DNA of 64,000 nt from Plectrocnemia conspersa (Eukaryota; Arthropoda; Insecta; Trichoptera; Polycentropodidae): contig VTFK01000288.1 in the NCBI GenBank assembly GCA_009617715.1, forward strand, positions 124,001 through 188,000, read 5' to 3'. The position numbers were made by a program, and so were the translations under genes. Below the pieces are notes generated by a model, which was not told where the DNA came from, made no database searches, and saw nothing but the letters and a program-made list of their open reading frames with translations. This document shows, piece by piece, positions 34,731 to 62,496 of this stretch. Each line of letters starts with the position of its first letter. Positions within the stretch are counted from its first letter, which is position 1.

Positions 34731-35029
34731 TTAAAACGTTATTGTATATCACATGTGAGTTTTTTTAATTAAATAAAAATAGCAGTTCTATTCTATAAAT
34801 TTTAGATAATTTATTTAACTTCTCGTCTTTTTGATTTTATCATACTTTTACACAATATCATTTATTTTGTTGTGATTCTTACAAACATGTTTTTTGTCAC
34901 AAATGGACCATATATAACATTTAAAATATTTTTTCAATGCACGATAGATTTGGAAACGAATTGCATATGGATCGTACTATTTTTCAATTTCTGTGATGTC
35001 TGTAAGTAATTATTATATAATTACAGCTC

Positions 35030-37270: not shown

Positions 37271-37789
37271 ATAATATTTTTTAATATAAATAAAATCTTA
37301 CTTTAAAATTCTACTGATACATATATAGATTCGATCAACATATATTTTTTTATTTCGTATAAGATTATCATAATCGATTTGATTTGAAACAAAACTATTT
37401 TATTTAACGGTTAAGTTAAATGTAATTTATTTGTATTTTTACTCAATATTATTTATTAAAATTAGTGTTACAACCGCATGAAAAAAAAATACTCAACTTA
37501 AGAAAATAATTTATTTAGTACCGATAATAAATATTGTGATGAAGGCTTTTATTTAAAAATATTTATTTTTATAGTAATCATGACGATGATCATTTTTGGT
37601 TACAATAACATAAAATATAGTTTTAAAACCAGTTTGAAAAGGTAAATTACATAAAGTAAATCAAGCTTTCTATTAAAATAGATACTTCATAATATATTTT
37701 TTCTTATTATAAATAAAAATAAAAATGACTTTTTTAACACCCCATAAATGTTAAGCCCGTTATAAAAAATAAAAATCGACCGTCTTTCA
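37271..37789. other. AT-rich intronic spacer
   Basis: No gene, repeat or motif cluster is visible. Confidence 0.4.
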
Positions 37790-39540
37790 AGAGCAAAAGA
37801 CTACTTTGGTTGTCATACTGTGGCATATATCACAAGTTTTATTGTAAATTGCTCCGTTTTGCGGCCGTCGCGTCGCAGCACACGGCCTTTTCGACCACCC
37901 TGTATTTCCTTTTCTGCAATATAAGTCACACAAGGGTCAACGCCTTCGGCACGAAAATTGCAAATAAAATAAATAGAGCCTCGCAGAGAAACGCTCGCAT
38001 CTCCACAAAGGAGAGCAACAAATACATAATCCCACCATACACGATGAGATAATGTACATATAAAAGGTGAACTTAATAAAGAAGCGAAGACACGTCGCCA
38101 GATATTGCCAAGTAAAGGCACGCGGTCATAGGAACGTCTGCATATTTACACCAAGGACGTCATACGCATCTCTGTTTTGTTTAAATGGCCATTTAGTAAC
38201 CCACGGGGTGGGTATATCACTTTTGTGCTCGCCCACGTATGTAAATTATGCCCATTGTCACCCGAGATGCATTAAGCGATAAGTTCGATCTACTCTAACC
38301 CTTTGCTAACCCACGTCAATGCATGAGATGTGATTATAATCGATAAACAGCATTATTGATCGATCCACAGCCGAGACTTGTCATGTATTCTACATCCAAT
38401 ACATAGTAGTAAAAAAAACAGCTTTTCAGTAGCGAACATATGCAGAAGCTATTCAATTGTAGATGTTTAGCATTCATAAAAAACGTAGTTATTAGACGCT
38501 TAACGTCACGGTAACAATAACAAATGATTTCGCGTAATTCCAGACACGTCTACTGTGTATAATGCTATATTGACCTTCGGATAGCCTAATTCGCATATTT
38601 GCCATTAAATTAATGCCATTGACGTTATGCTCATTTATGAATAGTTTAAACATTAGTGGCACGTTATAAAGATATCAAATCTGCATTATCTTGCTCAACA
38701 ACAAATCGTGCCCCGGAGGAAATTATACGCTATACTCGATATTTTCCATTATGTATTTTTAAACTTTTATTTGATGCACACACAAGAATGTGAGTTTAAA
38801 TTGTATAGCAAATATTTGCACATACAATTCGGGATGTGCTTGTAAAAATCGAGTCACGTATGCACTCACAATGATGCAACCGATTCTTTGGCACCGGAAT
38901 ATTTTAGCTTTTTTCACATCAGAGTGCCAAAACGAATTCGAAAGTGTTGGCACTGGTATCGAAAAGTGAAAATGTGGCTATTTTATAAATAAAAAAAATA
39001 TGTATATGTACATACGGTTGCTGAAAGGCGGCGCAGCTTTTAAAAGCTCTCACGCTCAACGCAATCAGACACATGTCATAAAGTGACAGGACAATGGCTG
39101 TAAAATATATCAACCCTTAGCTGGTAAGCTAATTGTGCTTTAGATGTCGGTTTCCATGCAATCAGTAGCGTACATATTTAAATAAATATTTTATTATTCA
39201 TAAATATGTGACTCATTTAAAAATTATTATTGCTATGGACCAAATTTGTCAATGGGTTTTTTTTAAGGCCAACGACATTGCATATTGATATTTTCTTTCA
39301 AGATTCACGCCCACATTTGCAAACTTTTTGATGTGTCATATTGTAAGCAATATAAAAAATCGAGTGCACATGTTAACATTCGACGTTTGTTGCAAAATGT
39401 TGAGCAGAGACATTGCTCTGGTTGTACAACCGCTACCTTACCATGCTGGTATCATTACTTGACCTATCCATATTCTTCTTATGGCAATGTCACTAAATGG
39501 CCTTAACCATTGATTGCCAAGAATGGACATGGACAAGATG
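37790..39540. promoter_or_regulatory. Extended GC-richer region within the intron
   Basis: About 1.7 kb of higher-complexity sequence broken by a few AT-rich stretches. Open frames on both strands (for example 37810-38052 and 37813-38121) overlap one another and carry no domain. The size and texture would suit several adjacent regulatory modules. Confidence 0.3.
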
Positions 39541-39599
39541 GGTAAAAAATAATACTCAGTTTTTTCAATCACGCCTCTTATAGTGTTACATAATGGACA

Positions 39600-39910
39600 A
39601 ATAATCTTAAATCTATCATATTAGACAATAACGATATATAACAGACGTAAGGTATTGAAATCAATATATTTATTACTTTGAAATAGTATATGTTCATATT
39701 ATATCTTAAAATAACTAATTTATAATATATTTAAAATAGTAGCACATATTGTTAGTGAGCTAAAATTTTAAAATTATTTAAATATGTCACTAATTTAAAG
39801 ATTATTGATATCTCACTATTTACTTAGTAGTTATTGATTTATTGATTGTAGTATTTATGCTTGACATGTTGCAACGGAGGATTGACAATAAATAAAATAT
39901 CTTGATGAAC
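39600..39910 (+). repeat. Interspersed repeat family, copy C
   Basis: Carries ATGTCACTAATTTAAAG, ATATCTCACTATTTACTTAG and TAGTAGTTATTG (core at 39821-39836), then GGATTGACAATAAATAAA, matching copies B and D in order. The edges are approximate. Confidence 0.55.
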
Positions 39911-40719
39911 AATTTTTTTTTATATTTTAACAAATACTCGAAAATATTTTTTTATTTTAAATTTTAATATAAATATATTTATTTTAAACTTATTTTTATT
40001 TTTTGGTTTATTGTGTTTATTAATGTAACTTGTTTTTGCAGATATAATTAGATTTTTGTTATTGTTGTTCATATTTTTTTTCAAAAAGACTTGTGTATGA
40101 TACTATATTTAATGAAATGGCAAATATAAAAAAAATTAAAACGATACTTTCATTTTTATCAGTAAATTATGGCAGAAGAATGAAACCAAATTTAATACGA
40201 GTAAAAACTGTCATACATATGATTATGCATTAAGTTTTTACTTGTATTAATATAAAATATATTTATACTTATATACAAAACGAATGATGTATATATATAG
40301 TAGATAAAATAAATTTGTTAAATACAATAATAAATCATATTTTTTCATAAAAAAAAGTTAATTGTCAATTATATTGTTTTAAGTCAATTCGTGTGTATTA
40401 AATTGTATTATTGTAGAAAAAACCTGTTATGTATTGCAATAATTCAACTGCGTAATATTGAGTCAGGTTCATTATAATTACATTACTATATTTTATAGTT
40501 ATAAATTTAAAACTAACCTCTGGTATTAGATTATTGTATTTACAATACAAGATGCTGTTAATACTGAATTCAATTGCTAAAGTATATCAAAATATATACA
40601 ATAGTTTATATTGAAATGCATTGGTATTATATGATTAATATAATGACACAAATAGACTTCAACGAGCAATAAGCCGCCAAACCTTTAATTACTAAATACT
40701 AATAATTGTAAAACGCATT

Positions 40720-40756
40720 ACTAATAATGATTTTATTTTTTGTTGCAGGTAAGCTT
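40720..40756 (+). promoter_or_regulatory. Recursive splice site (ratchet point) 1
   Basis: A branch-point-like CTAAT at 40721-40725 is followed by a T-rich tract and TTGCAG ending at 40748, then immediately GTAAGC from 40749. A 3' splice site joined directly to a 5' splice site forms a zero-length exon. After the first splicing step the rebuilt donor is used again. The site lies 11.74 kb from the donor at 29008, on the same strand. Confidence 0.6.
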
Positions 40757-41029
40757 CATTGAATCCATCTGTCTACCATCCATCTTCAAACATCGTGATT
40801 GAGCCGTAAGGTTGGATAATTTTTGTATAAATTGAATGCGATGACACAAATATTTTAGCTTGTAAAGCTTCATAATCGCCTTAACAATTTTATCTATATT
40901 GTTGTATTAAAGTGATGTTTTGCAACAGTGGATGATGCAATGCTTAAACTTAATACGTTTATAATATTACAGAAGCTCATAATTTAACTGTACAAATGTA
41001 TGTGCGAATATTTTTTCTCCCCTATTTGC
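40757..41029. other. Intronic spacer after ratchet site 1
   Basis: No open frame continues from the acceptor: frames run into stops within short distances. This argues against a normal internal exon here. Confidence 0.35.
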
Positions 41030-43000
41030 AGATAATGTAGGAAAAGTCTGTGCTATCTTCCCACGCGCACTGTTTAGAAATAGATCTGGTTCATAACTTG
41101 TCGAGGATTATTAAATGCTTTTTCCATATTTGTAATACTAGGGGTTCACACGGACAGTTTTTCTCAACGTTATTGCGCAATGTTCGAAGTCGTTGACTTC
41201 CATAGAAACCTTTACCATTTTTATCAGTGTATATAAAACACATACACACAAGATGTCGTTCATCTAAAGACATTCATCAATCATCATTTAGCAACGGATG
41301 CAGGATGGCCTTCTAAAGTATTTTGATTGGCCTCATACATATACGTACATAGGTATTCTCGTAAAATATTAAGGTAATTGCCATATAACGTCATGATGTA
41401 CGCGCCGGCTCTATAAAAATGCTTAGATCACCATGTAATTGCGATATTAAATTAATACATATTTATTCATCAATAATAATATAACAAATATTCGTGTTAT
41501 TTTTTAATTATTTAATAACGTTAAAGCATTTTTTGCTATTATTTATATTAAGATTGTTACTTTACAAATGAGAAGCTTAATTACATTATATCTTAAAACT
41601 TATAACGCAGATTTATTTATTTATTTAATTTTTTTGTTGATTATTTTCGGTCATCTTTAGATTAGCTAACCTAATAAAAATCCAAGTATGGTTAGTTCAT
41701 GCTTTTATTAAAATATGGCGCTGAATTTTAAATCTTGCTCTCAAAATTTGGCAGTGCATCAACGTGCACGGTGCATCATATTTATATAGTGACCGCGCGC
41801 GAAATGTATGCCAAATGCATAATAAAGCCTTTGCGGTAGAATTTACAGTTTTGCATCGGTATGAAACTGGTTTTTGCAACGGATTAACGTCGTTAACATA
41901 ACTTTAAATCGAAACCGTATAGTTACATAAACGCGTTAAGAATATTTGAAGAACAGGGCAAAGAATGACGATCGTGTTCCTTACAATGTATCGTAAAAGT
42001 TAGCACCCGAGAGAAACTCAAACGGAATGAGCGAATGTGTCACGATGGAATTATGGCTAGCGACGCTTTGCCACGTTTTGTTTCCATTCATCATCGGACC
42101 ATTGAAAAATCCAAAGCTCGCCGAGAGCTTTCCGGCCATGAGCTCGACTATAAAACCGCGACATGGCGTGCTCAAATTTGACCTCGTAGAAACCCGCAAC
42201 GTATATACTGAAAATGAAAATAAATGGACAAAGCGATGTGTTTGACCTCACGCAGGTCGTTGTCGATAAACATCATGGATTGATTCTCATCCTTTTTTCT
42301 ATAAAAATTCATACAACATTCTCAGTGTCTTAATCAATTTTGTATAAGTGTCATAAAAATCTTTGTGCTTATAAATCAATTACTATTACTAATTTCAAGA
42401 ACAATTATTTACGCCCTTGACCGCAGCGGTTATGCAACTTTGAGCATGATCGCAACGCGATTACATACGTTTACGTTATATCGATAACAATGTATGAATT
42501 ACGATGCATTATTATTATAAAACATTTCCTAAGGGCACGATGCTCGGCAACACACCCACTCGAGATGCGAAAACGAGTGGGTCTCAGATTTCAATATCAC
42601 CCGAAGCGAGTATTCAAATTGAATATGTGGTCACTCTGCACATATCTTGCCCTACAACACCTGAGCCCTGCATGCTCCGGCGTAGCATTACGACAAGAGA
42701 GCAAACAAAGCGGGAGGCAATCCAATCCTTGACCATGCATGACATTAAAACGACTATCGTGATCTCTTCAAACACACAGCGTTCCGAAAGTCATAAAATG
42801 ATATGAAAGGGTATTTATTATACGTACATGTGCGTTAGAACTCCAGCGTTGTACACTTTCTGAGAAGCGTCGTTAAAAACGCACCGTTATGCTTAGAAGT
42901 ACACTTTGAAGAACGTTCATAAGTTGCTAATTTTATGCACATTTCTTGCTTAAATCGGCAATCTATTCGAGCTTTCTCTCTAAAGTTTGCTCGGCAGTAA
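41030..43000. promoter_or_regulatory. Extended GC-richer region within the intron
   Basis: About 2 kb of higher-complexity sequence. TATAAAA-type words occur at 41412-41418 and 42149-42155 with no convincing initiator and leader. Frames of 60-100 codons overlap on both strands without domains. Probable conserved regulatory DNA; an alternative promoter near 41.4 or 42.15 kb is a weaker possibility. Confidence 0.3.
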
Positions 43001-43928
43001 AGCAATAAATGGTATTTTTAAATGTAATGAAGTACCACAAAACTTTGCGAGAGATGGTAAAATTCATTTTATAGTTACAGTATAATATTTATTACTATGA
43101 AAGAGCTGCCATAATGCATAGCTTTTATTAGTGGTAAAGTTTATTAATATTTACTTTTCGCGAATGTATAATATAAGAACATGCAAATGCCAAAGCTTTC
43201 TTGAGAAACTAATTAAATTTTATAGTTTTTACAATTAATAGGTTAAAAATATTGTATAAAACCATCAGTTAAATGTTGCAATATGTTAAATATAAAGGTT
43301 AGTTCATCTTTATGACACACATATGCGATCAAGTTTTATATCAACGATATCAAAATAAGTATCACACTATATTATTTTAACTACAATGTAAATGTAATAG
43401 CAGAAAAAAATTTAAAAACGTATTTTGTAATAAAAATCAATTTTAATACAGATAATTTAACTTTTTCTACAAAATACAATATTTTAGTCTAATAAAATAT
43501 GTCTAGTCTTATTTTGCGCATTAATTACTTTAAAAATATTTTTTATCACTATTTTAATTTCATGCTTAAAAAAATTGATAATCGAAACAGTGATTATTTC
43601 ATTACCATTACATTGTTAGATTTCAGGAAAGTCTTCAAGCATAAGTATAATAACTTATATTTTTGTGTTGAATGCTTTACCATAAAAGTTTTAGTTAGGT
43701 TAGTGCTATAATAACAAATGTTTATTTACCTAATATTTATGATAAATAAAATAACATAGCTAAGACCGTTTTTCAGTTCATTTAAAACATAAATAAATTC
43801 TTTAATAATTAAAGCAATATTATATATAATAAAAAGTACAATTATTAGGTCTTATGTTTTACTTATTTTGAGATTTGAGGCAATTTCATTTTTTTATTAA
43901 ATAATTTTTCTAAAATGTATCTTTTAGT
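43001..43928. other. AT-rich intronic spacer
   Basis: No gene is visible. It ends where the left direct repeat flanking the LINE begins. Confidence 0.4.
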
Positions 43929-44010
43929 ATTAGTATGAAAAAAATCAAAATATTATGTTCAATGACATTGAATTACAAAATAATAAATAAAATATTTTTA
44001 AGATCCTATT
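43929..44010 (+). repeat. 82-bp direct repeat, left flank of the LINE
   Basis: Starts ATTAGTATGAAAAAAA and includes TATTATGTTCAATGACATTG and AATAATAAATAAAATATTTT. It is repeated at 45331-45415, directly after the A-rich 3' end of the LINE. The copies differ by roughly ten percent, mostly in A-run lengths. Confidence 0.8.
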
Positions 44011-44079
44011 TTTTTTCTAGTACATTTTTTAATGGAGTCACAATAATGTATATATTCCTAAAATGTATCTAACTATATT

Positions 44080-45330
44080 TTATTTGTCGTGTATACAGAT
44101 TTTGAAAAAGCCTTTGACAAAGTTTGTCATAGGTTATTATTAAAAAAATTGTCGAACCTCGGTTGCTCTGATAATTAACTCGGTTATTCTTGAGTTATTT
44201 AAGCAATCGTAGACAGTTTGTAGCCTATGTTGGCCGATTGTCAAAAGAATATTTTACCCCTTCGAGGGTTCCTCAAGGATCCAATCTGAGACCTCTGCTT
44301 TTTGTGTTATTTATTAATGACGTAAATACAGCAATTAAAAATTCAAGTTTTCTTCTGTACGCAGATGATTTAAAATTATATAAATGCATTCGATCTGTTG
44401 TGGACTCCTTCTCTCTACAAAGTGATTTAGACTCTCTGTGGAGATGGGCTTCCATTAACCGTCTGCACTTTAGTGGCGGAAAGTGCGATACTGTGTCATT
44501 TTCTCGATCCCGTTCGCCATCAGCTTATTTCTACCATCTCGGTGGTAACATTTTGATTAGAGAAACTTCCACTAAAGATCTCGGAATCACTTTCGAGAGC
44601 AAATGGAGGTTCTCTCTACACATACACGACGTCTGTGATAAATCTTACAAGATGCTCGGCTTTGTTATGAGAAATGCCTTTCACTTTGACGATCCGTCAG
44701 TTATTCGCATCCTCTATGACACCTTAGTTCGTAGCATTCTTGAATCGGGATCTATAATTTGGAATCCCCGAATAGCCAAATATTCCCTTTTAGTGTAAAA
44801 AATTCAAAAAAGGTATTTAAGATACCTTTACAAAAGGACATTTGGTTATTATCCGTACTTATATCCCAGCGCCTTTTTTTTAGGAGCGTTGGGATATGAT
44901 TCGCTGAGTTCTCGCAGAAAGCTGTATGTCGCTAAGCATTTTTTCAAATTACTAAAAGGTGCTGTCGACAATTCAGCTATTCTCGAGAAATTCCTGTTTT
45001 GGGTTCCGGAACATTTTCGAGAATCACGATCGCGATCTCTTTTGATGGCCGTTGGGGCTAGGACATCCGCACTTGCCGACTCGCCTATAGCTGTGGCCAT
45101 CCGGCTTCTTAATACGCTGGCATTACATATTGACTTATTTAATGTTAGCTACGAGGATCTGATACAGTTTGTAACATTTAATTTTGATATTTTATAATTT
45201 TTTGTTATGTTTAAGTATTGTTATATTTATGTATATATACGTTTTTTATGTTTTATAAATTTAAAATTTGTTTTCGACCATCGTGGCGCATTGGGGTAAC
45301 CTGTCTTAATTTAATCTAAAAAAAATAAAA
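44080..45330 (+). mobile_element. 5'-truncated LINE (Jockey superfamily)
   Basis: A non-LTR retrotransposon fragment on the plus strand. It starts inside the reverse transcriptase near 44080 and runs to an A-rich tail at about 45319-45330. After the coding part there is a short AT-rich 3' region with the word TGGCGCATTGGGGTAACCTG, also seen in altered form at the end of the second copy (about 55590). Direct repeats of 82-85 bp flank it. Truncation at the 5' end is the normal outcome of incomplete target-primed reverse transcription. Confidence 0.88.
44082..45197 (+). pseudogene. LINE reverse transcriptase pseudogene
   Basis: The palm motifs are clear: FEKAFDKV (from 44101), PQGSNLRPLLF (about 44268-44300) and the catalytic YADD (44358-44369). 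They are followed by the thumb and C-terminal region (KRTFGYYPYLYP, then GYDSLSSRRK). The first part is in another frame from the main open frame (44190-44798), with a stop at about 44178, so a small deletion lies between. A TAA at 44796-44798 breaks the frame again. The remainder (about 44799-45197) continues in the same frame to IQFVTFNFDIL and a final stop. The endonuclease domain and ORF1 are absent. Confidence 0.88.
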
Positions 45331-45415
45331 ATTAGTATGAAAAAAAAAAATTTAAATATTATGTTCAATGACATTGAATGATAAAATAATAAATAAAATA
45401 TTTTTTAGGCCTTAT
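45331..45415 (+). repeat. Direct repeat, right flank of the LINE
   Basis: Second copy of the sequence at 43929-44010. It begins right after the 3' A-rich tail of the LINE, the position expected for a target-site duplication, though it is unusually long for one. Confidence 0.8.
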
Positions 45416-45539
45416 TATTTTGCACTTATAAATATTTTTTTTATAAAATCAGTTTTACAAATTTTACTTTTACAATTAATTTAACAGATCTACTAGAATA
45501 AAGTCAACCAATTATATGGCGTCATTATAGTTAAAAGCT

Positions 45540-46010
45540 TGTCTTTCTATCATTGTAATATACTCGCATTAGATTCACTGCGCCGGCGATAGTGCGTACC
45601 CACCCGCCAAGACGGTCAATGCCGCGGCCTTCCCCTTAATAACAAATTTACGACGTGAGAGTGCCTCGGCGATAAATCCACCTTTGTTTTTGCTCGCAAT
45701 TAAATCATCCTTTATTGTTTTACAATCGGCACAGCGCGGTATAAATTTGCCGTTTCGTGTCGGTCATGCAGCAAGGGTGCCTCCTTTATCTCGATGGTGC
45801 TGCATCGCGTGTTGAGCGCCAATAACCTAGCATTCTTTCATCTCGTGACGTCCCCCTGGGGAGGAAGATGGAAACCCAATACCTGCAGTCACTGGACCCC
45901 ATGCGAGAGCGTGTCGCATAAAATGGTGTCGCCCAGCGTGACACCTGACATACTTCCCTACTGCAAGCCATTATTTTTCACTTTTGTCCAAAACTCCTTG
46001 TCGTAATTCA
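45540..46010. promoter_or_regulatory. GC-rich block within the intron
   Basis: CpG-containing sequence with homeodomain-type words such as CTTAATAACAAATTTACGAC. Overlapping open frames on opposite strands (45786-45971 and 45794-46006) have no domain. Candidate regulatory block. Confidence 0.3.
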
Positions 46011-47522
46011 GCTTCATCAGTTCTGGATTTAAAGATAAACTAATAAACTGCAACCTTATATTACCAAAAATAAAATATAATCTGATTTCACGCAGTACTT
46101 TTTAGTTTAGCACATACGATTCAAGTACATATATGTACATATGTGTTGATTTATTTTTTATTCATTTTATTCGTGACCGTGGAATTATCTATAAAACAGA
46201 TAAATTTATTTTATATATGCTCACTGTACATTCTGCGGACAGAGTGGCGCATTTAAATATTTAAATAGATGCTGATATCGTAAACATGAAGATGAAGGGC
46301 ATCTTGTATGTAGCATACTGTGCCTGTTGAAATGATACGACTGCACTTACTTACCTTTTTTAATATACGGACCATACGTTGAATTTATGCCAAAACACTG
46401 AATTGCAATGCTTTGTGTCATTCTACACAAAAAAGATATCCGTAATCATGATTCAGGTGGTTTTTTTTTAATTCTCAAACCAAACTTGCGGTTAAATCTT
46501 CACTTTAAAAAACAAGACGCATTAGTAATGATTTGTACAAGTGAAGTGGGTCGTGTGTGTTTATTTTGTGTAAGATTATAATAATTAGTCACGATAGAAA
46601 ATTTATCTAAAAAGTATGAGGTAAAAATATATCATATACAAATTACCTGGCTTTGACGATTTCTTACGTTTCCGCATTTTGACTATTGCACTCAAGTTGT
46701 AAATTATTTATGGTCGTGTTCTACGCTTTTTTTATTTTTATTTTGTATTCGCATTTTTGCGCGAATATAAAAGGATGGTTTTGTTATTTGGCGTTTCGTA
46801 TTACGTGTTATACATTTTTTTTGTATAAAAATGAGTCATGGTATTGTCGAGTTAAAAAAAAAAAGAATAAGAAAAAATCATTGATTGAATTTGACTATGA
46901 CGTTTCAGTTTTTTTTTTGTTGGAAGATGTAACACTTACCTTATAATTCTAACACGGTCATGATATGGAGATTTTCAATCGATTTGTTTAATATGGTATA
47001 ACGATAATAAAAACAAGTTTTACATATAATATTTATAATCTATACTGTAGCTTAAAACTACCTTGAAATAAATATATAGATATTATTTTTTTATTCTTTA
47101 GACGGTTTTTTATTAATTATTTTCTTGTAATGCTTTCTCTTGTAGCATACATTTTTTATTTAATAATAATTAATCTGTTTTTGAATAATCTTCTAAAATA
47201 AAAGATTTTATATTGTTAAGAATAATATTAAACAATAATGTTAATAAATATTTTTTTAATTATTATTTAATTTAAACAATGTTTCATAATAAACTAGTAT
47301 TGTTTTAGTTATAAATTGGTAGCTCACATACGTCACAAATTTTAGTTTGTTATTTTGCTTGTCTTTATTAAATCAGCTTTAAAGTTAAAAAAAGTTCACA
47401 TCGATTTGATCTTTTCTAATTAAATTCTAGTCAATTCTAGCTTCAAAGTGTATTGATAAACAAGAAGCTGTAGTTATTAAATATCGGCTTGAGTGAAGAT
47501 CGATATTAATAGTATCCTGACG

Positions 47523-47540
47523 GACCGTATGGTACGAAAT
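47523..47540 (+). repeat. Dispersed motif GACCGTATGGTACGAAAT, copy 2
   Basis: One mismatch from the copy at 20869-20886. About 85 bp on, TTATACGTAATGCTATATG resembles the continuation of copy 1 (GATACGAAATGCTATAATA), suggesting the region holds two eroded pieces of the same repeat. Confidence 0.5.
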
Positions 47541-47899
47541 ATTATATGACAATGCCCTGATTTATGGCAATATGTTAATTATAAAACCTGAAAAATCAAT
47601 GAAACGTCTTATACGTAATGCTATATGATAATATTTTCCCCTTGCTTTATTTCGTGAATGCGATGAAATTCGTGACCATGTCTGCAGCATCACAGATTAA
47701 AAATATAAATTGATAATATGCGTTTATAACGTTACTGTACGTTTATAATATTAATAAAATAGCAGACTATTTCTTTCTAGTCTCAAAATAGCTTATTTTT
47801 TATTGCCTTAAATACAAGTATTTATAAACAAAGAACTTTTTAAATGCTCTTGAACCCAAATTTTATTTGATTTATAAACAACAACAAATATATCTAATA

Positions 47900-47979
47900 A
47901 ATAAATTCAGCCACTACCATAAAATCAACAACAAAAATATGAAAATAAACCAATGAATAAATTTAGCCACTACCATAAA
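47900..47979 (+). repeat. Tandem duplication, 56-bp period
   Basis: The 24-mer containing CAGCCACTACCATAAA at 47900-47923 recurs at 47956-47979 with one change. Both are accompanied by a CAACAACAAATAT-like word. Confidence 0.75.
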
Positions 47980-48229
47980 TAAACTAGTTACTGTATGTAG
48001 ATGTTTTTATATATTTAGTAAAAAGTTACCTAGCGTTTATGTTATATCTACTGACCGCTTGTAATTATTAATACATTTGTATATTTCCCTCAAATCAATG
48101 ATGATGTGGATATCAAGGTTTATTGTAGTTGTATGCATTAATAAAAAAATATGGTACATAATTTTGGGGCTACTTATAAATGCGCCACTCTAAATTTATA
48201 TTAATTATTTTGACTCACCGTTGAGTATT

Positions 48230-48830
48230 TGGTCTATAATCTACTATTGAAACGATGATGTCATATTAACGTGCGTTTTTTCAGCCTTTTTTTCACTCAC
48301 CCATGACCCCTGTTGTTATTTTTTTCAAGTCTGACTAGTTTGCCGATCGAAATCGAATCTTCGATACATTCGGAAGTGTCCGATGATCCGGAGGTTCGTG
48401 ACCACCGCAGCCTTGGCGGGAGCATCTTCGTACGCGCGCCGTTTTTTCCTTATTTTTTTGGTTTTGGACGATCAAAGCACTTTCGGGTCGCAAACTTGAC
48501 ATTTGGGATTTGAGGTCGCACGCCCCGCCGCACGTCCTCGACCCTAGCCGTGGAGACCACCGGCTCATCGCGGAGCGTGATCATCAGGATTTTTTCATCC
48601 GGAGGTCTTCTTCGGCGTCATCGCCGGCTTGCGTCATCGCGCGGCCTTGCGAAAATCTCTCGCAAAAAAATGTGCAAGAAATAAGCATTTTTTTCTTTCG
48701 GTACAGCACCGAGGGTTCGCACCATGTCGGTTATGGCGATTCTCACGATGCCATCGGCGTGAATCACGGGTGTTTATCACTTAATGTGTTTTGATTTGGT
48801 GTAATGCGTTCGCGCGATTGGCGATTACTC
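48230..48830. promoter_or_regulatory. GC-rich block within the intron
   Basis: The most CpG-rich stretch of the right half. Frames of 66-94 codons cross it on both strands without recognisable domains, and no GTAAGT-type donor follows. A regulatory module or an unrecognised alternative exon are both possible. Confidence 0.3.
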
Positions 48831-49319
48831 ACATGAAACGCTGTAGTATTCTATACAAGTTTATGCATTCCTAATTGTGCAATACATACATGCATGCATG
48901 AATGCAATAGCATAAACGAATTATTTTTTTTAATCCGTCAAATCAACAAATCGGCGATTCGAATCACGTCATGCTTTAATGGATATTATACACATCATAA
49001 AAAAAAACAATAAAATGATCCAGTCTACACTTCTGTATTATCCTCGCTCAATATAAATCATAATTATTTTAATAGAAATATATTTTCAATTGCTTTACAT
49101 CTGCGTTCGATAACGTAAGCATTAAATTTATTAACAATTAGTGATACATACTAAGCTTTTTCAAAGATTAAAATATACTAGCAATAATTTAACAAAATTT
49201 GATGTAAATCAATCAAAAATTTTCTTGAGCTAACAATTTATTTATGATTCATAATTTTTTTATTAATATCATCGATCAATCCTTTTATGAATAATATATG
49301 ATAACTGTTATTTATTTCG

Positions 49320-50220
49320 TAGAGCGATTACTTTCAATGTCAGGAACAGAAAAACGAGAGCAGAAGTTGCCTCCGAAACGCATTTATCACCACTCTCACT
49401 TTCGTTAAATAGCATAAATATATTCATACATACAAAATATGTATAACAATACGTCCTTCGTTACATATTCGCGTGTTAATTCCAGACTTTCAATGTCAAA
49501 TTTTATATTATCTCACGTCAACGTTTATGAAATACGTTTTTGATGAGCGTTCCATACAAAAGGCATTAAAACGAGGACATATCTGGCATGTAAAATCATC
49601 ATTAAACATGATGTTTTAAAGGTATACATATATATATTATATATCACACATACCATTGACAGTGAACTTGCACACAAGATCATTAATAATCGGCTTTTTA
49701 AAGTGCGACATTGAGAGGCGAGCCGATCGTTTTGTGAATGGAGAATGCGTTTTCATTCATGACTTTTGGTGGAAAGCAAAGTCAGGCAAGTCCGTCGACC
49801 TTGAGAGCCGCACGCGAAATTTTATTGAAAATTTGCATACAATCCGCGGTTGTCCACAAAAAATACAATTTAATTCAAATAGCCGTTTTATCCTCACTTT
49901 TGTATAAAGATAAATCTTTCCTAATAACTTCATTGTTTTTAGTTAAATTATCCGGTTAATTTATTGTCGTCGCGGTTAACAAACGAGGTTTCGCATTGAG
50001 CACGATGAGCTGATCTTCTCCGCGTTTGAAGATTATAGCGTGTTGAGAAACAATGGTTCAATGCGGACGTTAGATAATTTTTTCAACTATATTATGAAGG
50101 CAATTTGCATCTGATTTTTTATGAATGAGCCGCGTCCGAGATGCAATATAGTAACCATCAATTTTAGAGTTAATTAATTAGAAGCGTGTGGAAAAAATGG
50201 CGTGATGCAACCGCAGTCAG
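49320..50220. promoter_or_regulatory. GC-richer region within the intron
   Basis: About 900 bp of higher-complexity sequence between AT-rich spacers. The 73- and 83-codon frames at 49656-49959 overlap each other and carry no domain. Candidate conserved non-coding DNA. Confidence 0.28.
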
Positions 50221-50949
50221 ATTTTATTGTTATACCATAAAATAGATGAACTATTTATGCTAAATCTTGTTTTATATACTGCAATTTTCTATATTAAATA
50301 ATTGTAGAGCATATTCAGAAATTTACATAAATTAAAAATGCTATTTACTAACTCTATATACATATATTTTTTGCACCTTGTAAGAAAATAATTACGACAA
50401 TGAATTCTCATCCATTTAAAATACAACATTATTATAAAATTGTGGTATAATATATAATAATCAAGATTTCATTATTTAATAAAATTATTAAAAAGTTAAA
50501 CTAGGATTAAATTATTCTTATCAAAAAAATTTTTTTTTACATAATTAAATAATATATTTTACTACCACGATTAAATGATTAATATCTAGAAGACTTGGGT
50601 TTGTATCTTATATGAATCCTAGTTTTTTTTTATTATCATCGTATATATGCAAATTAGTGACTATTATATTATTGTAATTATTAGTTTTTCCTTGATATTT
50701 TTAATATCGCCATGAATATTTTTTTTATATTGACATATTGATTGTTAGCTGTAATAATAAAAAATATGCCACTGATTTGCATAATTTGATTTCAGTCTGG
50801 TGTTCCACTACATACTTAGTAGTTGTAACGTATCAGATGATTTACAATAAATAAATTTGTTCGGAATGATTTCAAGCTTTATAAATTTATATTGAAATAT
50901 AAAAAAATATTATTTTAATTTTATCATACGTTTAAGAATAGATTTATAT

Positions 50950-50957
50950 ATTACAGT
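50950..50957. repeat. hAT target-site duplication, left copy
   Basis: ATTACAGT directly before the terminal repeat; identical to 51622-51629. Confidence 0.95.
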
Positions 50958-51621
50958 TAGGGATTCCAATCCCGGGCCAAAATTTTGATCCCGGGATTTC
51001 GGTATTGCAATTAGCCGATCCCGGGATCCCGGGACCAGTCCCGGGATAATTTTCATGTTATTTTATCGATAAAAATAATTTAAAATGAATAATACAATAT
51101 ATTTTTACATCTGTTTTTTATAACGTACAATGTATAAAGTACGTATAATTTTAGTCTTGGACTTAAAATAGAAAATAATATATTAAAAATAAAAAAGGGA
51201 AGGTCTTAAATATTTATTTAAGAAGAAGAAAATGAACTTTTGACAATGTATGTACATACTATGTACATTCATAGACACAATTAATTGAAAACATTATTTT
51301 GAATAAAGTTCACGAAGTAACATCAAAGCATCAAGTGTTTTATCATTTAGCTTTGATCTGATTTTGGTTCCTAAGCAGCCTGCTGCTGAAAAAGCACGTT
51401 CAGACTCACAGCCTCAAAGATTCACAGATGACATGTGCAACTCGCGCAAGTTTGTACACGAAATATAACGATGTTGTCAATAATAATTCGATTGTGCTTG
51501 ATAAATCAACCAATCCGAAAAATTCGGGATTATGTTTTATAATCCCGGGACTCATCGGGTATTGAAAATCGTCCGGGATCCCGGGATCCCGGGATTCGGG
51601 ATCCCGGGATTGGAATCCCTA
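50958..51621 (-). mobile_element. Non-autonomous hAT element with perfect ends
   Basis: Terminal inverted repeats TAGGGATTCCAATCCCGGG are perfect over 19 bp (50958-50976 and 51603-51621). The flanking 8-bp duplication ATTACAGT is exact (50950-50957 and 51622-51629). Both subterminal regions are packed with GATCCCGGGA units, probably transposase-binding repeats. At 664 bp the element keeps only the tail of a transposase on the minus strand. Perfect ends and target duplication indicate a fairly recent insertion. A different hAT lineage from the element at 1254, judged by its ends. Confidence 0.95.
51294..51416 (-). pseudogene. hAT transposase C-terminal remnant
   Basis: On the minus strand a frame reads SERAFSAAGCLGTKIRSKL and on through LMLLRELYSK to a TAA at 51294-51296. 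This is the hAT dimerisation region with its usual termination. An in-frame TGA just upstream (about 51414) and loss of everything before it show that only the last forty or so codons survive from a parent transposase. Confidence 0.88.
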
Positions 51622-51629
51622 ATTACAGT
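51622..51629. repeat. hAT target-site duplication, right copy
   Basis: ATTACAGT directly after the terminal repeat; identical to 50950-50957. Confidence 0.95.
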
Positions 51630-52670
51630 AAATAAATAAAATAAATTGATAGATTGAACTTTGTATATTGATGATTTAATGCCTGATAAAATGCTTTAGA
51701 AATACTTTTCTGCGAATTGCTACAATTTTATTGCCATTAAATGTGTTATGTGCGATAAAAAAATAGTCATGGCAACTGTGTTATATTGATGAAATAGTAC
51801 ACATTTTGGTAAAATTGATCAGGAAAAATCGCTTATTGTTTATTTATTTAAAAAGAAATATTATCTTTTTTTAGGAAAGATTTTTCCGACCTTGGCCCAT
51901 TACGGAAGCAATATTGCTTTTTATGGAGACGGCTAATTTTTATTCTATCATTCTTTCGCTGCTTTGATTAATCTAGTTGTAGTTAATCTATATATCATAG
52001 AGTCATTAGGATCAGCATCATAACGAGTCACGTTTCTGATCTTTGACACAACCTCTTTGACACAAATCTCATTGCTCAAAATATTTTAGAGAAAAAATCA
52101 TGCACTCTATTTTTTATTAAAACTTAATTTACCAATCAACCATTAATATATTAAAAATAATATATGATAGCACTTGATACGATGAATATTCTCAGTGTCT
52201 TATCTTCTATGTTTAAAATCAACTAACCACTTTTTACCATTTTTAATAAAAGATTATGTGTATAAAATATTTGTAATTTATCTTAGGAATTTGTTATGAT
52301 GTAAATTTTTTTTTGTGCATTTTGTGTTTACACTTTTATGAAATTCATTGAACTTTTTAATTCAGAAATATAAGAAAAATCACACATAAGCTTTCCATAT
52401 GTATAACCCCATGATTTTTCAGTGCTTCTTCTCTATCTAGAGTCTATTTTAATAAAAGGCAAAAATGATATTTGATGTACATATATTTAATATAAATTAT
52501 TTAATAGATGTTACAGATATTTAATGTAACATATCCAGGTTGCATATGCCATAAAATTAATGTTATAGATTGTTCATTTATATAAATCATATTATGCTTA
52601 ATTTTCAGTAGAGCTTTAATTGTATTTACTATGCAACAATAGGAAAATGTTACTGTGCAATCTTAATGTC
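51630..52670. other. AT-rich intronic spacer
   Basis: Beyond the tail of repeat copy D no gene or further repeat is visible. Confidence 0.4.
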
Positions 52671-52679
52671 ATCTAGATT

Positions 52680-53340
52680 TGGAAAACATCTTCAATTGTG
52701 CATAATGCGCTTTACAATCAGCCCGAGTCCCTACAGCGGCAAATGAGATTTCCGCTGATTACCTGAATGCAAAAAGGCTCACACAAAAGCCCTTCGGTCG
52801 AGGTTAGAGGTTAGCGACCGCGCTTCTTCAAAGATCCACCATCGTTCGGTTCTCATATTTTGCATTCTAAAAATATCATCCGCGGCCACAGCCACCGCAT
52901 TCCCGAGGCCGCACTGCGGGTTATCTCCATTAGCACATTATCTATGTGTAAGATCACGATGTTCCGGACAATGGCAGGATACTGGGGAGAGAGAGAGAAG
53001 CCCCAGGCTCCGGACCGCATGGATATCATGACTAAGATACAAGTCCTGCCGGGCTCTAAAATACGCCTTATCCCTCAATTAATACTCGGACGCGATCGTG
53101 CTATGTTTATTCCGATACATTGTCCATGCGAAACGGACAACATTTATCACGCGGCTCTATTGTTGTTATTAATAATATTTTTTAATAAATACAGGACTTG
53201 TGATGTTCTGAAATTTATCATGTCGGTGTTAGTTATCGATTGTGAGCTTTGCTTATTAAGAATTGACACATGAACGCGAATCGTGCGTTGAATATTAATC
53301 GACCGAAATTTTGTCTTTCGGCACTTTGAAGTTTAATAAA
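52680..53340. promoter_or_regulatory. GC-richer block within the intron
   Basis: Contains the longest non-transposon open frame of the window (137 codons, 52860-53273) with no domain. A short hydrophobic run at its end comes from T-rich DNA. No splice sites frame it and its start lacks a promoter, so I treat the block as non-coding. Confidence 0.3.
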
Positions 53341-53519
53341 ATGCAGTTATCGAAAATATAAAATACACTTTGTTAAAGGTTAAAATACTGGCTCTTATGT
53401 ATATTAAAGATTTATATTAAAAAAATATGTTTTAGAGTTCACTATAATTTATTTATAATTTAGTGGCGCTTAATAATATAATACCATTTCATATAAAATA
53501 TATAATTAATAACGTAATA

Positions 53520-54300
53520 CATTTTGTTACATATTAACGTGATACATACGAGGCACATTTAAGGTCAATGTCTTGCATTGTTATACACACACGTTGGAAT
53601 TTTTCTTCCACGAAATTATTACATAATGAATTGTTTACGTGAAAAGAGATTTCACGCTTGGCTACCGCGCATGCGCAGATTATACACGCGATTACCATTT
53701 TCATATTACGAGTCACTAACATCGCGATTTTCGTGAGATTTTCTCAATGAAATGATACATCTATTATATTAACACATATCCGATGAGTAATATCGATCTA
53801 TTTGATAATATTGGCATTTTTATCGAGTGTAAAACATTCGATCGCGAAAATATTTCTTTGCCGTACAGGTGGTGTTGTGCGTGAACTCGATGCCATTGTT
53901 TTGTGATGTAACAATGAAGTGTTTCCCACGTTTGTTTCACTTGTTCACGGAAGATGATGATGATGATGCACTATGAGCGAGTTTTTGCATGTAAAAGTAT
54001 GCGCGATCATTCGCCGTGACAATGGTTAAGCAAATTAATATGGACGATGTTGTTGCAAAAAAATCAACATTGCGCACACTTACACTATCGGGCGAGGTCT
54101 TATTTTTTTTTAATCTGTGCAGAATTACAGATGAAAAAATCAAGCAGGTATTCAGCGTAGAGAATCTCTCGATTTTATTATGTGCTGAACGCTCCGTAGC
54201 GCACGGAAATCTTGGATATTGTGAAAAAAGCAAAAATTATCATGTAATGCATGGGCATTTGTACTGAAGTGAACTTTATAAGTTTACATATACATATTCA
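53520..54300. promoter_or_regulatory. GC-richer block upstream of ratchet site 2
   Basis: Higher-complexity sequence with overlapping open frames on opposite strands (53937-54233 and 54016-54267) and no domain. It ends about 110 bp before the recursive splice site. Confidence 0.28.
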
Positions 54301-54390
54301 TGCGAGCTTGAGAGCAACACCCTAGAATTATATAATAATAAATATTATGCATGCGTAGTATTGTAATATGATACTTTATTTAATATTTAA

Positions 54391-54426
54391 TTAATGTATT
54401 TATTTTCATTTTTTGCAGGTGAGTTA
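54391..54426 (+). promoter_or_regulatory. Recursive splice site (ratchet point) 2
   Basis: A branch-point-like TTAAT at 54391-54395 leads into a T-rich tract and TTTTTTGCAG ending at 54418. GTGAGTTA follows at once from 54419. The arrangement repeats that of site 1 and lies 13.67 kb beyond it on the same strand. Confidence 0.6.
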
Positions 54427-54639
54427 TTCATACATGAATTAACTGTCAAACATATCGACTTTCATCAACGTACTCAATCAGTTTGGTAAGATTTATATCA
54501 TAGGTAAATATATATATAAAATTACTATTTACTTATGAGTAGTAAAGAGCTGAATTTTCGTTCTATTTTCGCGAGAGTTTTTTTGTCTTCCACACAATTG
54601 ATCTTTAGTACTGACTATCAAATATACAGCGTTGAGAAG

Positions 54640-55620
54640 TTAAAGACAGGTGTTCTTCTGAGCCTAATTCGACTTTTGATTTAATTTTAAAGGATTGCGA
54701 CGGCAGTCTCGCTGCTATTTTTGATCTGCTTTTCAATACATCAGCATTTCCTGATTTTTATTAATGCAGAAAAGTCACACTTATTCATACAAATAGTAAA
54801 GAACTATAGAAGCAAACGCTATTATGTCAGCTCCTGCTTAATTTTTCGAATTATTTTAAATCACTTTCGGCAAGTTTTAATGAACCAAAAGCATTGTTTA
54901 CGTCCTGTTTGTTCCACTGTTATTAATCTTCTGGCTTTCACCAACACAGTGACAACATCTTTTGATGCAGTAATTTGAGTAGATGTAGTAAATACATATT
55001 TTGAGAAGGCCTTTGACAAGGTTTGTCATGTTATATAAATAAAAAAAAATAACTTCAGCGATTATGGATAGTTTGCAACTCACTTCAAAAGTCCCTTTGC
55101 TCTTCGCGTTATTCAATATTGACATAAATACAGCAGTTACAAATTTAATTTGCTTCTGTATGTAGATGATTTAACATTGTTTAAATGCATTCGATATGTT
55201 GCGGTGATTTAAATAAATCGTCTGGCGGAAAGTGTCATTTTCTTATTTATATTCGCCATTCTCGTTGGAAAATTTTTGGCTTAATAAACTTCCACTAAAA
55301 ATCTAAAACCACTTTGAAGAGCTAGGGAAGGAATGCATTTCACTTTCATGGTCTTCTTTGATACTTTCTTAAATGTTCGCAGCATTCTTAAATCAGGATC
55401 TATAATTTGAAATCCATGAATAAGCAATCTTAATCGGAAAACTTTATACAGGTATATTTTATAATTATTCATTGCTGTATCCCAGCGCCTTTATTTTAGG
55501 AGATGTTTTTATCTTACTTGTATTATATTTTTTGTGTACTGTAATAATACTGTGAACTATTTTTTTATTATCGTGACGCGTTTAAGGTAACCTGTTAGTT
55601 GACAATAGACTCAATTGATT
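54640..55620 (+). pseudogene. Heavily decayed LINE fragment (Jockey superfamily), second copy
   Basis: The fragment begins upstream of the palm domain (KDCDGSLAAIFDLLF from about 54690), continues through STVINLLAFTNTV (about 54910) and FEKAFDKVCH (from 55003), and reaches a mutated active-site box, YVDD, at 55159-55170. Later words matching copy 1 include ILKSGSII and the end sequence with GGTAACCTGTTAG near 55590. Many frameshifts, stops and deletions separate these. It has the same orientation as copy 1 and starts further 5' in the protein, so it is a separate, older insertion. Confidence 0.78.
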
Positions 55621-56080
55621 TAAAATTTAATTGTGAATAATTTTAAATATCAATATCAAATTTAAATGGTTAAAATATTATTATTGCCAAAGTTAATTGT
55701 AAAAAGATAATGATGATATATTTTTTTGAGAAACATTGACTAAATTTATTGTATTAAAATAAATTATTTAAATTAAAATATTATTAATTATAAATAAATA
55801 TAAATAATTTTTAACATTAACTAATTTATTAAATAATATTATATTTTAATCTCAACGACTATTTAGAATGTTATGCTTGGTAATATATATTCCATATAAT
55901 AAGTACTAGCTGTAAATTTACTATGAAATATATGATTCAATTTTTTCTTGGTAACCTTATAGCACACATAAAAAATATATTGGCATAGATTTTATCATAC
56001 TGTTACATACATATCTTTTATTGTTTTCGTCAATCTTGTCAGTAAAATACCTACCAAGGCAGTCCGAGATACAGTTAGTT
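55621..56080. other. AT-rich intronic spacer
   Basis: No gene or repeat is visible. Confidence 0.4.
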
Positions 56081-56790
56081 ATTTAATCAAACGCTTGCAG
56101 ACTTCAACGTATCGAAGTGAGAGAGATAAAGTCTGAGCAGCGAAGGCAAACGCGCGGTCGACGAACCTTCTGTATAATATTTTTTATCTCATAACTTATT
56201 TACACACCGGATCGAATCAATTCAAGGGCCATTTTTGTTTGCGAGCCAATATCGACTCTCCAGCTGCAATTGTATAGTAGTGCAATCTCGTTTATGGTAA
56301 TAAGCCTTGTTGGAATCATCGTTTGCGGTCAAACATTTGCAATTCGCTCCGCTCTTTTTCATTTAATCTTATTGTCAATTTTTTAATACCGATCATCACG
56401 TCGCCAGTTGTCAATCACTGGCGCAAGCACGTTTCACCCGCTCGAGTGCCGTCATTGTCAGACTACCACGTAACGAAACTTAATTTGTGAATCACAATGA
56501 GCGAGAAAATTGCTTTATAGCGTATGTCATTCCCATTACTTTTTTGCTCGGCGTCCTCCTCGTTATTCCCCTTTTTATTGCCCCAGTACGGTGCAGGTGA
56601 TAAATTTTATATCCTCTCTTACTTCCGTGTGAGTGTGTATGTTTTTTTTTTCGTCCCTGTTTTTCCCCGTTTTCCTTTCGTGTCAGAGATGAATTCTGAA
56701 TCATGCCTTTGGGAACGTGTCCTAGTGGAACTTTCTCCTTTTTCTTCAACTGTATAAAGGTTAATGACACGCGAACAATAATATACAGGG
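56081..56790. promoter_or_regulatory. GC-richer block within the intron
   Basis: About 700 bp of higher-complexity DNA including CGCGGTCG and a pyrimidine-rich patch near 56530-56690. Overlapping frames on both strands lack domains. Confidence 0.28.
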
Positions 56791-57199
56791 CGAATACGGA
56801 ATATGCTGCAAATAACTAATGAGCTATTAAGGTCTATATATGTTTAGCAGTATTATCATTTATTATCAATTATATTCAATTTAATTTAAAATTTCGTTCG
56901 ATTAACTTTGATAAGCTTTTTCTTATATCATCAATATCAAGTTGAGCTTTTAAGAAATAAATATGATTTTTGTATTTATTTACTTTCAATAGTTTTAGTA
57001 CAAAGATCAAAGTTCTGCACATTTTATACAAAAATAAATGTATTTTAATTTAAGTTAAATACATGTAAATATATGAAAAAATAAACCATCAGCTTTATAT
57101 ATGATATAATAAAATATACAAAAATCGATTTTACATAAAACATAAATATAAAAGGAAGAAGATTTCATGTAGATCAGATTAAAAATTAATGCACGAATA
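56791..57199. other. AT-rich intronic spacer
   Basis: No gene or repeat is visible. Confidence 0.4.
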
Positions 57200-58780
57200 A
57201 GCATCTACAAGGTTAGCGTAAATCACTTTATTGAACCAACGTCAACAACCTCCTCTTTTTTGCATCTCGGAATTCGATCGGATAGTATAACGTAATACAA
57301 AAAAAACGCAATCGAACTATACCGATGATCGGCCGCAATCTACAAGAGGTAATTTCCTCTGATTTTTCTGTACAAGCAAATGTGCATTTCGATCGTACAG
57401 ATCCGTCAATCACGTGGTCGATCTTCGATTTTCAATAGATTCAACAACGTCAGATTATCCTGATAATGCCGATTCACCCTGACGTTTCATATGCAGAATA
57501 TCGTGATTGAAACTGAATTTTGGTTGAATCATCGCATGCGAAAATGTTTGACATCTTTATATTTATTGATTTATATTGATGAACCTTAAAAATGCGATGC
57601 GCTAATAAGACAACGTGATGGATGAAAATCGCCTTCGGCTGTTTGACTTGATTGATTTTTAGAAGCGTCGGTACACTTTGAAGGCTATGTACCGTTAATG
57701 TTGCTAAGGAAAAAATCTCACTTAACAGCAAATAGGATTAAGACAGGATACAAGACCATTGAGCGCTGATTATGTGGTTCGATATGCAAATATCTGCATA
57801 TTTTATACATTATACAAATGTCGTTCTATTGAAGAATTTTACATGCTCGATACACCTAACTTCCGCCATTATCTAAATTATTTTGATAAATCGTTTCTTC
57901 ATCTCGGCATTGAAGTAATCACGTTTATTTTTTATACTTCCGACCTTAGCGCATGTATACAACGACGGCTATTATCCCTAACAGTTTTAAAGCCATTTAG
58001 CCATACACTAATTTAGGCTAGTATCAATTTCAAACGAAAGTGTATAATTGCAGCTGTGGTTAATGTGCCGTGAAACTTTGGATGTAGTTGGCTCGTTTGT
58101 CTATTAATTAGATCCGGCGTGTCACCTTGATGCTGTGCAACTGAGGATTCATTTTATTATTATATTTTATAGACTAGTGTTTTAATTAATATTTTCCCAT
58201 AAACACTAATTACCTTAGCGGCATTTCTCCAGAGAAAGAGGAATCATTAATCTTAATTATAAAGGCGGGCGATAAATCACGTCCTTTTCATAATAGGGCT
58301 CCGTCGGGTTGAGCTTCACTGATTTCTGCGTTTCGTTTGGCGCCGCTGCATCCTGCAGTATCGAGAAAGCTCTGCTCGAACGGCCGTGCAAAATTGGGGG
58401 AGAGCTTTTTCGAGACCGAGGGGGTCGAGTTACCAAAAGCGTTGCGGCTTTTTCATAAGAAACTCTCCGGCGGTCTGGTAATCAACACAAGGCTTCGAGA
58501 AATATCTCGTCTCGGTGTCTTGCGAGTCTGCGGCTGTTCTGGGAATGCCTCATGCATAGCAGGTGAACAATTGTCGAAGAAGAAAAAATAATAGATATGT
58601 ACTACATGAGCACATTTCGACACGTATTCGTACGAACAAATTGCTTCTAATTCACGAATCACGATTTTCAACGAACGCCGTGATTTATTCAAAGTGTACA
58701 CAAACAATAACGCGAGCATCATGTGACTTTTAGTTAACATTGGAACATAATAAATAAAGCCTATATGTCGCTCATGATCA
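57200..58780. promoter_or_regulatory. Extended GC-richer region within the intron
   Basis: About 1.6 kb, densest at 58290-58560. Frames of 60-111 codons on both strands overlap and carry no domain. Its size and its place among similar blocks suggest an enhancer cluster. Confidence 0.3.
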
Positions 58781-62490: not shown

Positions 62491-62496
62491 GACAGC

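What the first reader, a model, noticed from the sequence alone, without database searches (positions are those of the whole stretch)
40720..54426. Two consecutive zero-length-exon (recursive) splice sites on the same strand
At 40748|40749 and 54418|54419 a 3' splice site with a branch-point-like motif about 24 nt upstream and a T-rich tract is fused directly to a consensus 5' splice site. No extendable open frame follows either one. With the donor at 29008 they divide the region into steps of 11.74 and 13.67 kb. Ratchet sites are established for long introns of Drosophila genes such as Ubx; assigning this function here is inference from sequence. If confirmed, the window lies inside a giant intron of a developmental gene.
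Basis: partly seen in the sequence, partly recalled or inferred. Interest (0 to 1): 0.8.

Follow-up and report, generated by a model that had tools for sequence, protein, structure and literature searches.

The report
Stepping-stone splice sites in tenectin gene
Two sites that look like stepping stones for removing a 40,000-base intron in pieces sit in the first intron of an insect tenectin gene, and counts of the same motif across the genome suggest that many long introns there are removed in this way, as is known in fruit flies.

Summary
At 40748|40749 and 54418|54419 a T-rich 3' splice site ending CAG abuts a consensus 5' splice site. They are the only YAGGTRAG sites in the 64 kb on either strand, and each matched only itself in the 393 Mb genome. 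The host gene reaches outside the window: a short 5'UTR exon ends at 29007; exon 2 (signal peptide, judged by eye) starts at window coordinate 68591; the protein has the make-up of Tenectin, an extracellular-matrix mucin. Intron 1 is 39,583 nt and the sites cut it into 11.7, 13.7 and 14.2 kb. Each site has a weaker donor 57 or 67 nt downstream, as in the cryptic RS-exons of fly ratchet points. Genome-wide, TTTGTTNCAGGTRAG (the form at 40748) occurs 220 times against 3 for its reversed control; listed hits form same-strand series tens of kb apart. Best reading: Drosophila-type intronic ratchet points in an insect placed next to Lepidoptera, probably a caddisfly. No RNA evidence was available and conservation could not be tested. 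New member of a known kind; the G at -7 is the possibly new detail.

The parts
28918..29007 (+). Predicted non-coding exon 1 of the tenectin orthologue, 90 nt if transcription starts at the A of the initiator; no ATG
   Evidence: Initiator TCAGTC at 28916 with DPE-like GGACG at +28 to +32; it is 1 of 3 such Inr+DPE pairs on the + strand of the window, with 3 more on the minus strand, so suggestive only. Inr and DPE consensus recalled. Spliced to exon 2, the first ATG is that of the signal peptide.
29008..29013 (+). 5' splice site of intron 1, ACG|GTAAGG
29008..64000 (+). Part of predicted intron 1 inside the window; the intron runs on to window coordinate 68590 (39,583 nt in all)
   Evidence: exon 2 at L002:4591-4690
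40721..40748 (+). Ratchet point 1, acceptor half: CTAAT branch-point-like motif, T-rich tract with G at -7, TTTGTTGCAG
   Evidence: only its own match in the genome
40749..40754 (+). Ratchet point 1, donor half GTAAGC
40749..40805 (+). Putative cryptic RS-exon 1, 57 nt, stops in all three frames, closed by weaker donor GCC|GTAAGG
   Evidence: rank p 0.055 against same-size windows of the locus, so not strong alone
54390..54418 (+). Ratchet point 2, acceptor half: TTAAT motif, then TTTATTTTCATTTTTTGCAG (T at -7)
   Evidence: only its own match in the genome
54419..54424 (+). Ratchet point 2, donor half GTGAGT
54419..54485 (+). Putative cryptic RS-exon 2, 67 nt, closed by weaker donor TTG|GTAAGA (another at 54503, TAG|GTAAAT); holds an upstream ATG followed by AAT TAA
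   Evidence: rank p 0.099; stops in two of three frames

Best explanation
The two sites are intronic ratchet points in the first, 5'UTR intron of a tenectin gene. Exon 1 is spliced to 40748|40749, removing 11.7 kb and re-making a donor at the junction; that donor is spliced to 54418|54419 (13.7 kb), and the re-made donor there to exon 2 at coordinate 68591 (14.2 kb), so nothing of the sites stays in the mRNA. By analogy with flies, each site is first recognised by exon definition with a weak donor 57 or 67 nt downstream, and the stronger donor at the junction then wins. Shown from sequence: positions, strand, predicted gene structure, spacing, downstream donors, genome-wide series of like motifs. 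Inferred: that the sites are used, and in this order.
For: Only two YAGGTRAG sites in 64 kb on both strands, both sense and both inside intron 1. Against the other DNA of the contig examined (2 strict sites in about 442 kb of strand, a few kb counted twice), 0.18 are expected in the sense intron; P of two or more = 0.014. Three near-equal segments; chance of the smallest being this large for two uniformly random points = 0.012. Segment sizes fall in the 9-15 kb typical of flies, and fly recursive introns are enriched among first introns (PMC6110457, passages). Junction donors score 12.6 and 14.5 bits against 5.6 and 6.4 for the downstream donors, as the fly splice-donor-competition model expects (PMC8605326, passages). 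In 30 genome loci of a stricter pattern (of 32 hits), donors 30-90 nt downstream are enriched (Fisher p 1.2e-5; 12 of 30 with rank p < 0.1), though some of these may be ordinary exons. Genome-wide TTTNTTNCAGGTRAG 310 vs 70 reversed control (pattern chosen to fit both sites), TTTGTTNCAGGTRAG 220 vs 3 (chosen after seeing the list); with an impaired donor, TTTNTTNCAGGTYAG, 50 vs 26. Adjacent hits within 100 kb: 27 same strand, 1 opposite (100 of 310 listed); 24 and 0 (100 of 220 listed). These two lists overlap.
Against: No RNA data. No relative's DNA was available, so conservation is untested. The downstream donors of the two sites are not significant singly (rank p 0.055, 0.099), and the bin profile of the same call shows no clear peak at 60-120 nt. 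The acceptors of the two sites (10.7, 12.8) are not clearly stronger than the gene's own five (3.4-12.3). A minus-strand site at 32076 scores above site 1. The control GTYAG hits also show 5 adjacent same-strand pairs within 100 kb and no opposite ones among 50 places (read from the list), so some same-strand clustering may have another cause such as tandem duplication. The strict Y8 pattern is only weakly enriched (32 vs 20). Site 2 does not have the G form that carries most of the genome-wide excess.
Confidence: 0.85

Rival explanations
1. The sites are 5' ends of ordinary alternative 5'UTR exons of 57 and 67 nt that happen to begin with GTAAGC and GTGAGT and are included in some mRNAs (expressed RS-exons).
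For: Each has a usable downstream donor; being in a 5'UTR, inclusion would not shift the reading frame (exon 1 has no ATG).
Against: The junction donors are far stronger than the downstream ones; RS-exon 2 would add an upstream ATG with a stop two codons on; that ordinary exons rarely begin with a full donor consensus is inference, not tested.
Confidence: 0.08
2. Chance: two AG|GT composites in AT-rich DNA that are not used; intron 1 is removed in one step.
For: The bare octamer is expected 0.8-1.8 times per 64-kb strand in Markov simulations; a comparable composite exists on the minus strand at 32076.
Against: Full-strength composites are expected at most about 0.016 per 64-kb strand at the score of site 1; both lie in the sense strand of one intron at near-equal thirds; the genome as a whole has 220 of the site-1 motif against 3 in the control, with listed hits in same-strand series.
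Confidence: 0.06
3. The motif family is a dispersed repeat or mobile element carrying splice-like ends.
For: 220 near-identical 15-mers in one genome.
Against: Both window sites match only themselves over 221 and 231 bases; among 32 held 3-kb loci four alignments were found and none covers a junction; listed hits keep one strand within a series.
Confidence: 0.01

Closest known systems
Drosophila intronic ratchet points (zero-nucleotide recursive splice sites; Ubx, kuz, Bx; Hatton 1998, Burnette 2005, Duff 2015, Joseph 2018 - these four papers not read: recalled and seen as cited by others)
   Same: Juxtaposed strong 3' and 5' splice sites, sense strand of a long first intron, 12-14 kb steps, weaker donor about 60 nt downstream.
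   Different: Different insect lineage (next to Lepidoptera); tenectin not shown here to be recursive in flies; use not shown by RNA; site 1 and 72 of the 100 listed genome hits carry a G at -7 in the T tract. Fly logos could not be seen, so whether flies share the G is unknown.
RP-sites predicted in large introns of bee, beetle, mosquito and sea urchin (PMC2773006; section 6 read whole, passages)
   Same: Computational evidence of sense-strand enrichment outside Drosophila (ratios 4.0 bee, 8.0 beetle, 8.2 sea urchin, >>10 mosquito, against 21.7 fruit fly).
   Different: The tables read list no caddisfly or moth, and the section read gives no individual gene architecture and no extended tract motif.
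Tenectin (Drosophila tnc; PMC6040883, passages)
   Same: Signal peptide (by eye), VWC domains, long repeats, one RGD; N-terminus up to 75% identical over 265 residues to lepidopteran homologues.
   Different: 3,761 residues up to the end of the DNA joined; the homologues listed are shorter, but the search could list only proteins of about 990-3,140 residues, so longer ones would have been missed.

Membership tests
Drosophila-type intronic ratchet point | Strong 3' splice site joined directly to a strong 5' splice site around AG|GT | tested here: met
Drosophila-type intronic ratchet point | Lies on the sense strand inside a long intron of a gene | tested here: met
   predicted 39,583-nt intron 1 between 29007 and coordinate 68591; that exon 1 and exon 2 are joined in mRNA is predicted, transcription not tested
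Drosophila-type intronic ratchet point | Divides the intron into segments of about 9-15 kb | tested here: met
   11,741 / 13,670 / 14,172 nt against PMC6110457
Drosophila-type intronic ratchet point | Cryptic RS-exon: weaker donor about 50 nt downstream | tested here: inconclusive
   present at 57 and 67 nt and weaker, but rank p 0.055 and 0.099 singly; 30 other genome loci taken together significant
Drosophila-type intronic ratchet point | 3' splice site stronger than ordinary ones | tested here: inconclusive
   10.7 and 12.8 against five acceptors of the same gene, 3.4-12.3; the recalled matrix penalises the G at -7
Drosophila-type intronic ratchet point | Conserved AG|GT core in related species | not testable with these tools
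   states that the genome has no relatives here
Drosophila-type intronic ratchet point | Recursive junction reads, sawtooth coverage, lariats | not testable with these tools
   no RNA data
Tenectin orthologue (host gene) | Secreted, several VWC domains, mucin-like repeats, RGD | tested here: met
   signal-peptide-like exon (by eye), four matches to a VWC-like Cys pattern and an RGD at residue 99. Weak points: Pfam VWC found for 2 of 3 pieces and below its curated cut-off; of 99 homologues, all those with a source name are insect or crustacean, but the names as printed say mucin, titin and the like, not tenectin; Drosophila melanogaster tnc itself was not compared

The most novel reading that the evidence does not exclude
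In this insect lineage ratchet points have their own extended code, UUUGUU-N-CAG|GURAG with a mostly fixed G at -7, used at a few hundred places to step through long introns; the G could be read by a factor that tells a ratchet acceptor from an ordinary one.
Probability: 0.3. Interest if true: 0.65.

Novelty: new member of a known kind. Interest (0 to 1): 0.45.

Why it matters
Intronic ratchet points are documented by the hundred in Drosophila; in mammals only nine fully suppressed ones were noted definitively (PMC8605326, passage), and for other insects I saw only computational enrichment (PMC2773006). A gene-level case with full architecture, plus hundreds of motif hits with same-strand series in one non-fly genome, would make the evolution of ratchet points in insects directly testable. 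If the -7 G proves specific to ratchet acceptors it would bear on the open question of how the spliceosome picks these sites.

Tried and rejected
Rfam and tRNA scans of the window gave nothing. Pfam on six window ORFs found only a reverse-transcriptase match, in one of the six. Repeat origin of the two sites was rejected. A signal-peptide scan of the window for exon 2 gave three weak candidates, which were dropped when exon 2 was found at L002:4591. Whether G at -7 is a feature of ratchet acceptors or of all strong acceptors of this genome was not settled: TTTGTTNCAG alone occurs 6,818 times against 4,678 for its reversed control, TTTTTTNCAG 24,601 against 24,797, so ordinary acceptors may share the G. 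A check of region 31960-32450 (minus-strand site) for copies, a homeobox search to tie series to genes and a count of TTTTTTNCAGGTRAG were sent and never answered. Burnette 2005 and Duff 2015 are not held, so fly logos could not be compared; a text search for recursive splicing together with the tract letters listed three papers, none of which holds the words recursive splicing.
Full report
Observation. The two junctions read as described. YAGGTRAG occurs exactly twice in the window, both on the + strand, at 40748 and 54418. Scored with recalled generic splice-site matrices, site 2 is the best composite of the window on either strand and site 1 the third; a minus-strand composite at 32076 ranks second. 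Simulated sequence of Markov order 1, 3 and 5 gives the bare octamer 0.8-1.8 times per 64-kb strand but a score as high as site 1 at most about 0.016 times, and as high as site 2 never in 4 Mb each.

The gene. The window is bases 124001-188000 of a 360,312-base contig of a 392.9 Mb genome. Reading on downstream, L002:4591-4690 is an exon with a T-rich acceptor, a start codon, a sequence that looks by eye like a signal peptide (MGTENARRSALALIALIFALAPLVLT) and a GTAAGT donor in phase 1. Exons 3, 4 and 5 (48, 207 and 264 nt, keeping phase 1) and a long exon 6 follow in L004. Joined, they give an open frame of 3,761 residues up to the end of the DNA joined, with four matches to a VWC-like cysteine pattern, an RGD at residue 99 and long repeats. 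A search with residues 1-140 of exon 6 found 99 homologues among 818 candidates; all those with a source name are insect or crustacean. Of 12 whose first 260 residues I printed, 11 show the block CYYN..GDRI.TNEPCLNCTCH..MLMCYLRVCPF or a close form of it, two Drosophila-group proteins among them. This is the architecture published for Tenectin: secreted, vWFC domains, mucin-type, one RGD (PMC6040883, passages). No source name as printed says tenectin, so the name rests on architecture and on recall of the family. Pfam VWC was found for 2 of 3 pieces, below its curated cut-off.

Lineage. The N-terminal 305 residues match lepidopteran proteins best, the top row at 75% over 265 residues; Anopheles rows follow closely by bit score at 65-66% (432 against 444 bits; 40 rows listed). 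A tree of 22 rows puts this gene beside the seven Lepidoptera with support 82/86, below the tree program's star threshold.

Architecture. Exon 1 ends at 29007. An initiator TCAGTC at 28916 and GGACG at +28 to +32 suggest a start at 28918, giving a 90-nt exon without ATG; two other Inr+DPE pairs lie on the same strand of the window and three on the other, so this is suggestive only. Intron 1 is 39,583 nt. The sites split it into 11,741, 13,670 and 14,172 nt; for two uniformly random points the smallest part would be this large with probability 0.012. The other DNA of the contig examined (172 kb on both strands, the window before exon 1 on both strands, and the antisense strand of the intron; a few kb counted twice) holds 2 strict octamers, giving 0.18 expected in the sense intron and P of two or more = 0.014. 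Those two have weaker acceptors (5.7 and 7.4) than the sites (10.7 and 12.8).

RS-exons. Site 1 has GCC|GTAAGG 57 nt on, site 2 TTG|GTAAGA 67 nt and TAG|GTAAAT 85 nt on. Scores of the 57 and 67 nt donors (5.6, 6.4) are well below those of the junction donors (12.6, 14.5). This is the fly arrangement in which an RS-exon is recognised and then discarded because the junction donor is stronger (PMC8605326, passages). Singly the downstream donors are weak evidence (rank p 0.055 and 0.099); over 30 other loci of the strict pattern, 12 have rank p below 0.1 and Fisher p is 1.2e-5 (the 30 are those given as loci of 32 hits, and some may be ordinary exons, which also end in a donor). In the same call a 60-nt bin profile shows no clear peak at 60-120 nt (6 of 32, other bins 0-8, leaving out the bin that holds the junction itself). 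RS-exon 1 has stops in three frames, RS-exon 2 in two; since the intron is in the 5'UTR, inclusion would not shift the coding frame, though RS-exon 2 would add an ATG. That differs from kuz and Ubx, where disrupting the junction donor brings in frame-changing RS-exons (PMC8605326, passage).

Genome-wide. The pattern common to both sites, TTTNTTNCAGGTRAG, occurs 310 times against 70 for the pattern read backwards. With Y in place of R at +3 the count is 50 against 26. Among the 100 of 310 places listed, the N is G in 72, T in 19, A in 8 and C in 1; in 236 kb of this contig without the donor requirement it is G in 3 of 24, the two sites included. TTTGTTNCAGGTRAG alone, a form chosen after seeing that list, occurs 220 times against 3, so all other letters together make 90 against 67. 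Adjacent listed hits within 100 kb share a strand in 27 of 28 pairs, and in 24 of 24 for the G form (100 of 220 places); the two lists overlap. 24 of the 32 strict-pattern hits (those on contigs up to C272) compared with listed G-form hits within 130 kb give 14 same-strand pairs and no opposite one. Examples are seven hits in 254 kb on C111 and five in 173 kb on C147. For two series of the strict pattern (three on C217, two on C522) flanks are held and gave no alignment to each other, so they are not recent tandem copies. Against: the GTYAG control also shows 5 same-strand neighbouring pairs within 100 kb and none opposite among its 50 places (read from the list), and the strict pattern YYYYYYYYNCAGGTRAGT is only 32 against 20. 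Site 1 has the G form, site 2 has T.

Is the G special to ratchet acceptors? Not settled. TTTGTTNCAG is followed by GTRAG in 220 of 6,818 cases (3.2%), its reversed control in 3 of 4,678. For TTTTTTNCAG the share is about 0.24%, an estimate from the 19 in 100 and the 24,601. But TTTGTTNCAG as a whole exceeds its reversed control by 46%, so ordinary acceptors may prefer it too.

Verdict. Both sites are very probably intronic ratchet points of the fly kind in a tenectin gene of a non-fly insect. What is shown is sequence architecture and genome-wide statistics; use in splicing is inference.

Noticed in passing
whole genome G000, 220 places (100 listed): TTTGTTNCAG|GTRAG is some seventyfold more frequent than its reversed control and its listed hits come in same-strand series, suggesting many long introns with ratchet points and a characteristic G at -7.
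   Followed up: partly
G000 C628 (1485475, 1519335, 1550479 minus), C617, C891, C935; TTTNTTNCAGGTYAG, meant as a control, also shows same-strand neighbours tens of kb apart; tandem gene copies or ratchet points with GTYAG donors are possible.
   Followed up: no
32076 (minus strand): A strong composite ccgcag|GTATGT on the opposite strand inside intron 1, in a GC-rich patch; chance, or part of an antisense transcript. Context read; the search for copies did not complete.
   Followed up: partly
44175-45197 (+): Reverse-transcriptase remnant: Pfam RVT_1 in the first of two adjoining open frames, within the second intron segment.
   Followed up: no
1649-2791 (-): A 380-residue open frame that resembles hAT-type transposase relatives from memory; no Pfam hit at 0.001.
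   Followed up: no
L006:8018-8545 (-): Open frame resembling a ubiquitin-conjugating enzyme (UBE2G2-like, recalled), downstream of the tenectin gene.
   Followed up: no
28401-29100: Local rise of GC to 0.44-0.57 around exon 1 in an otherwise about 30% GC window, consistent with a promoter region.
   Followed up: partly
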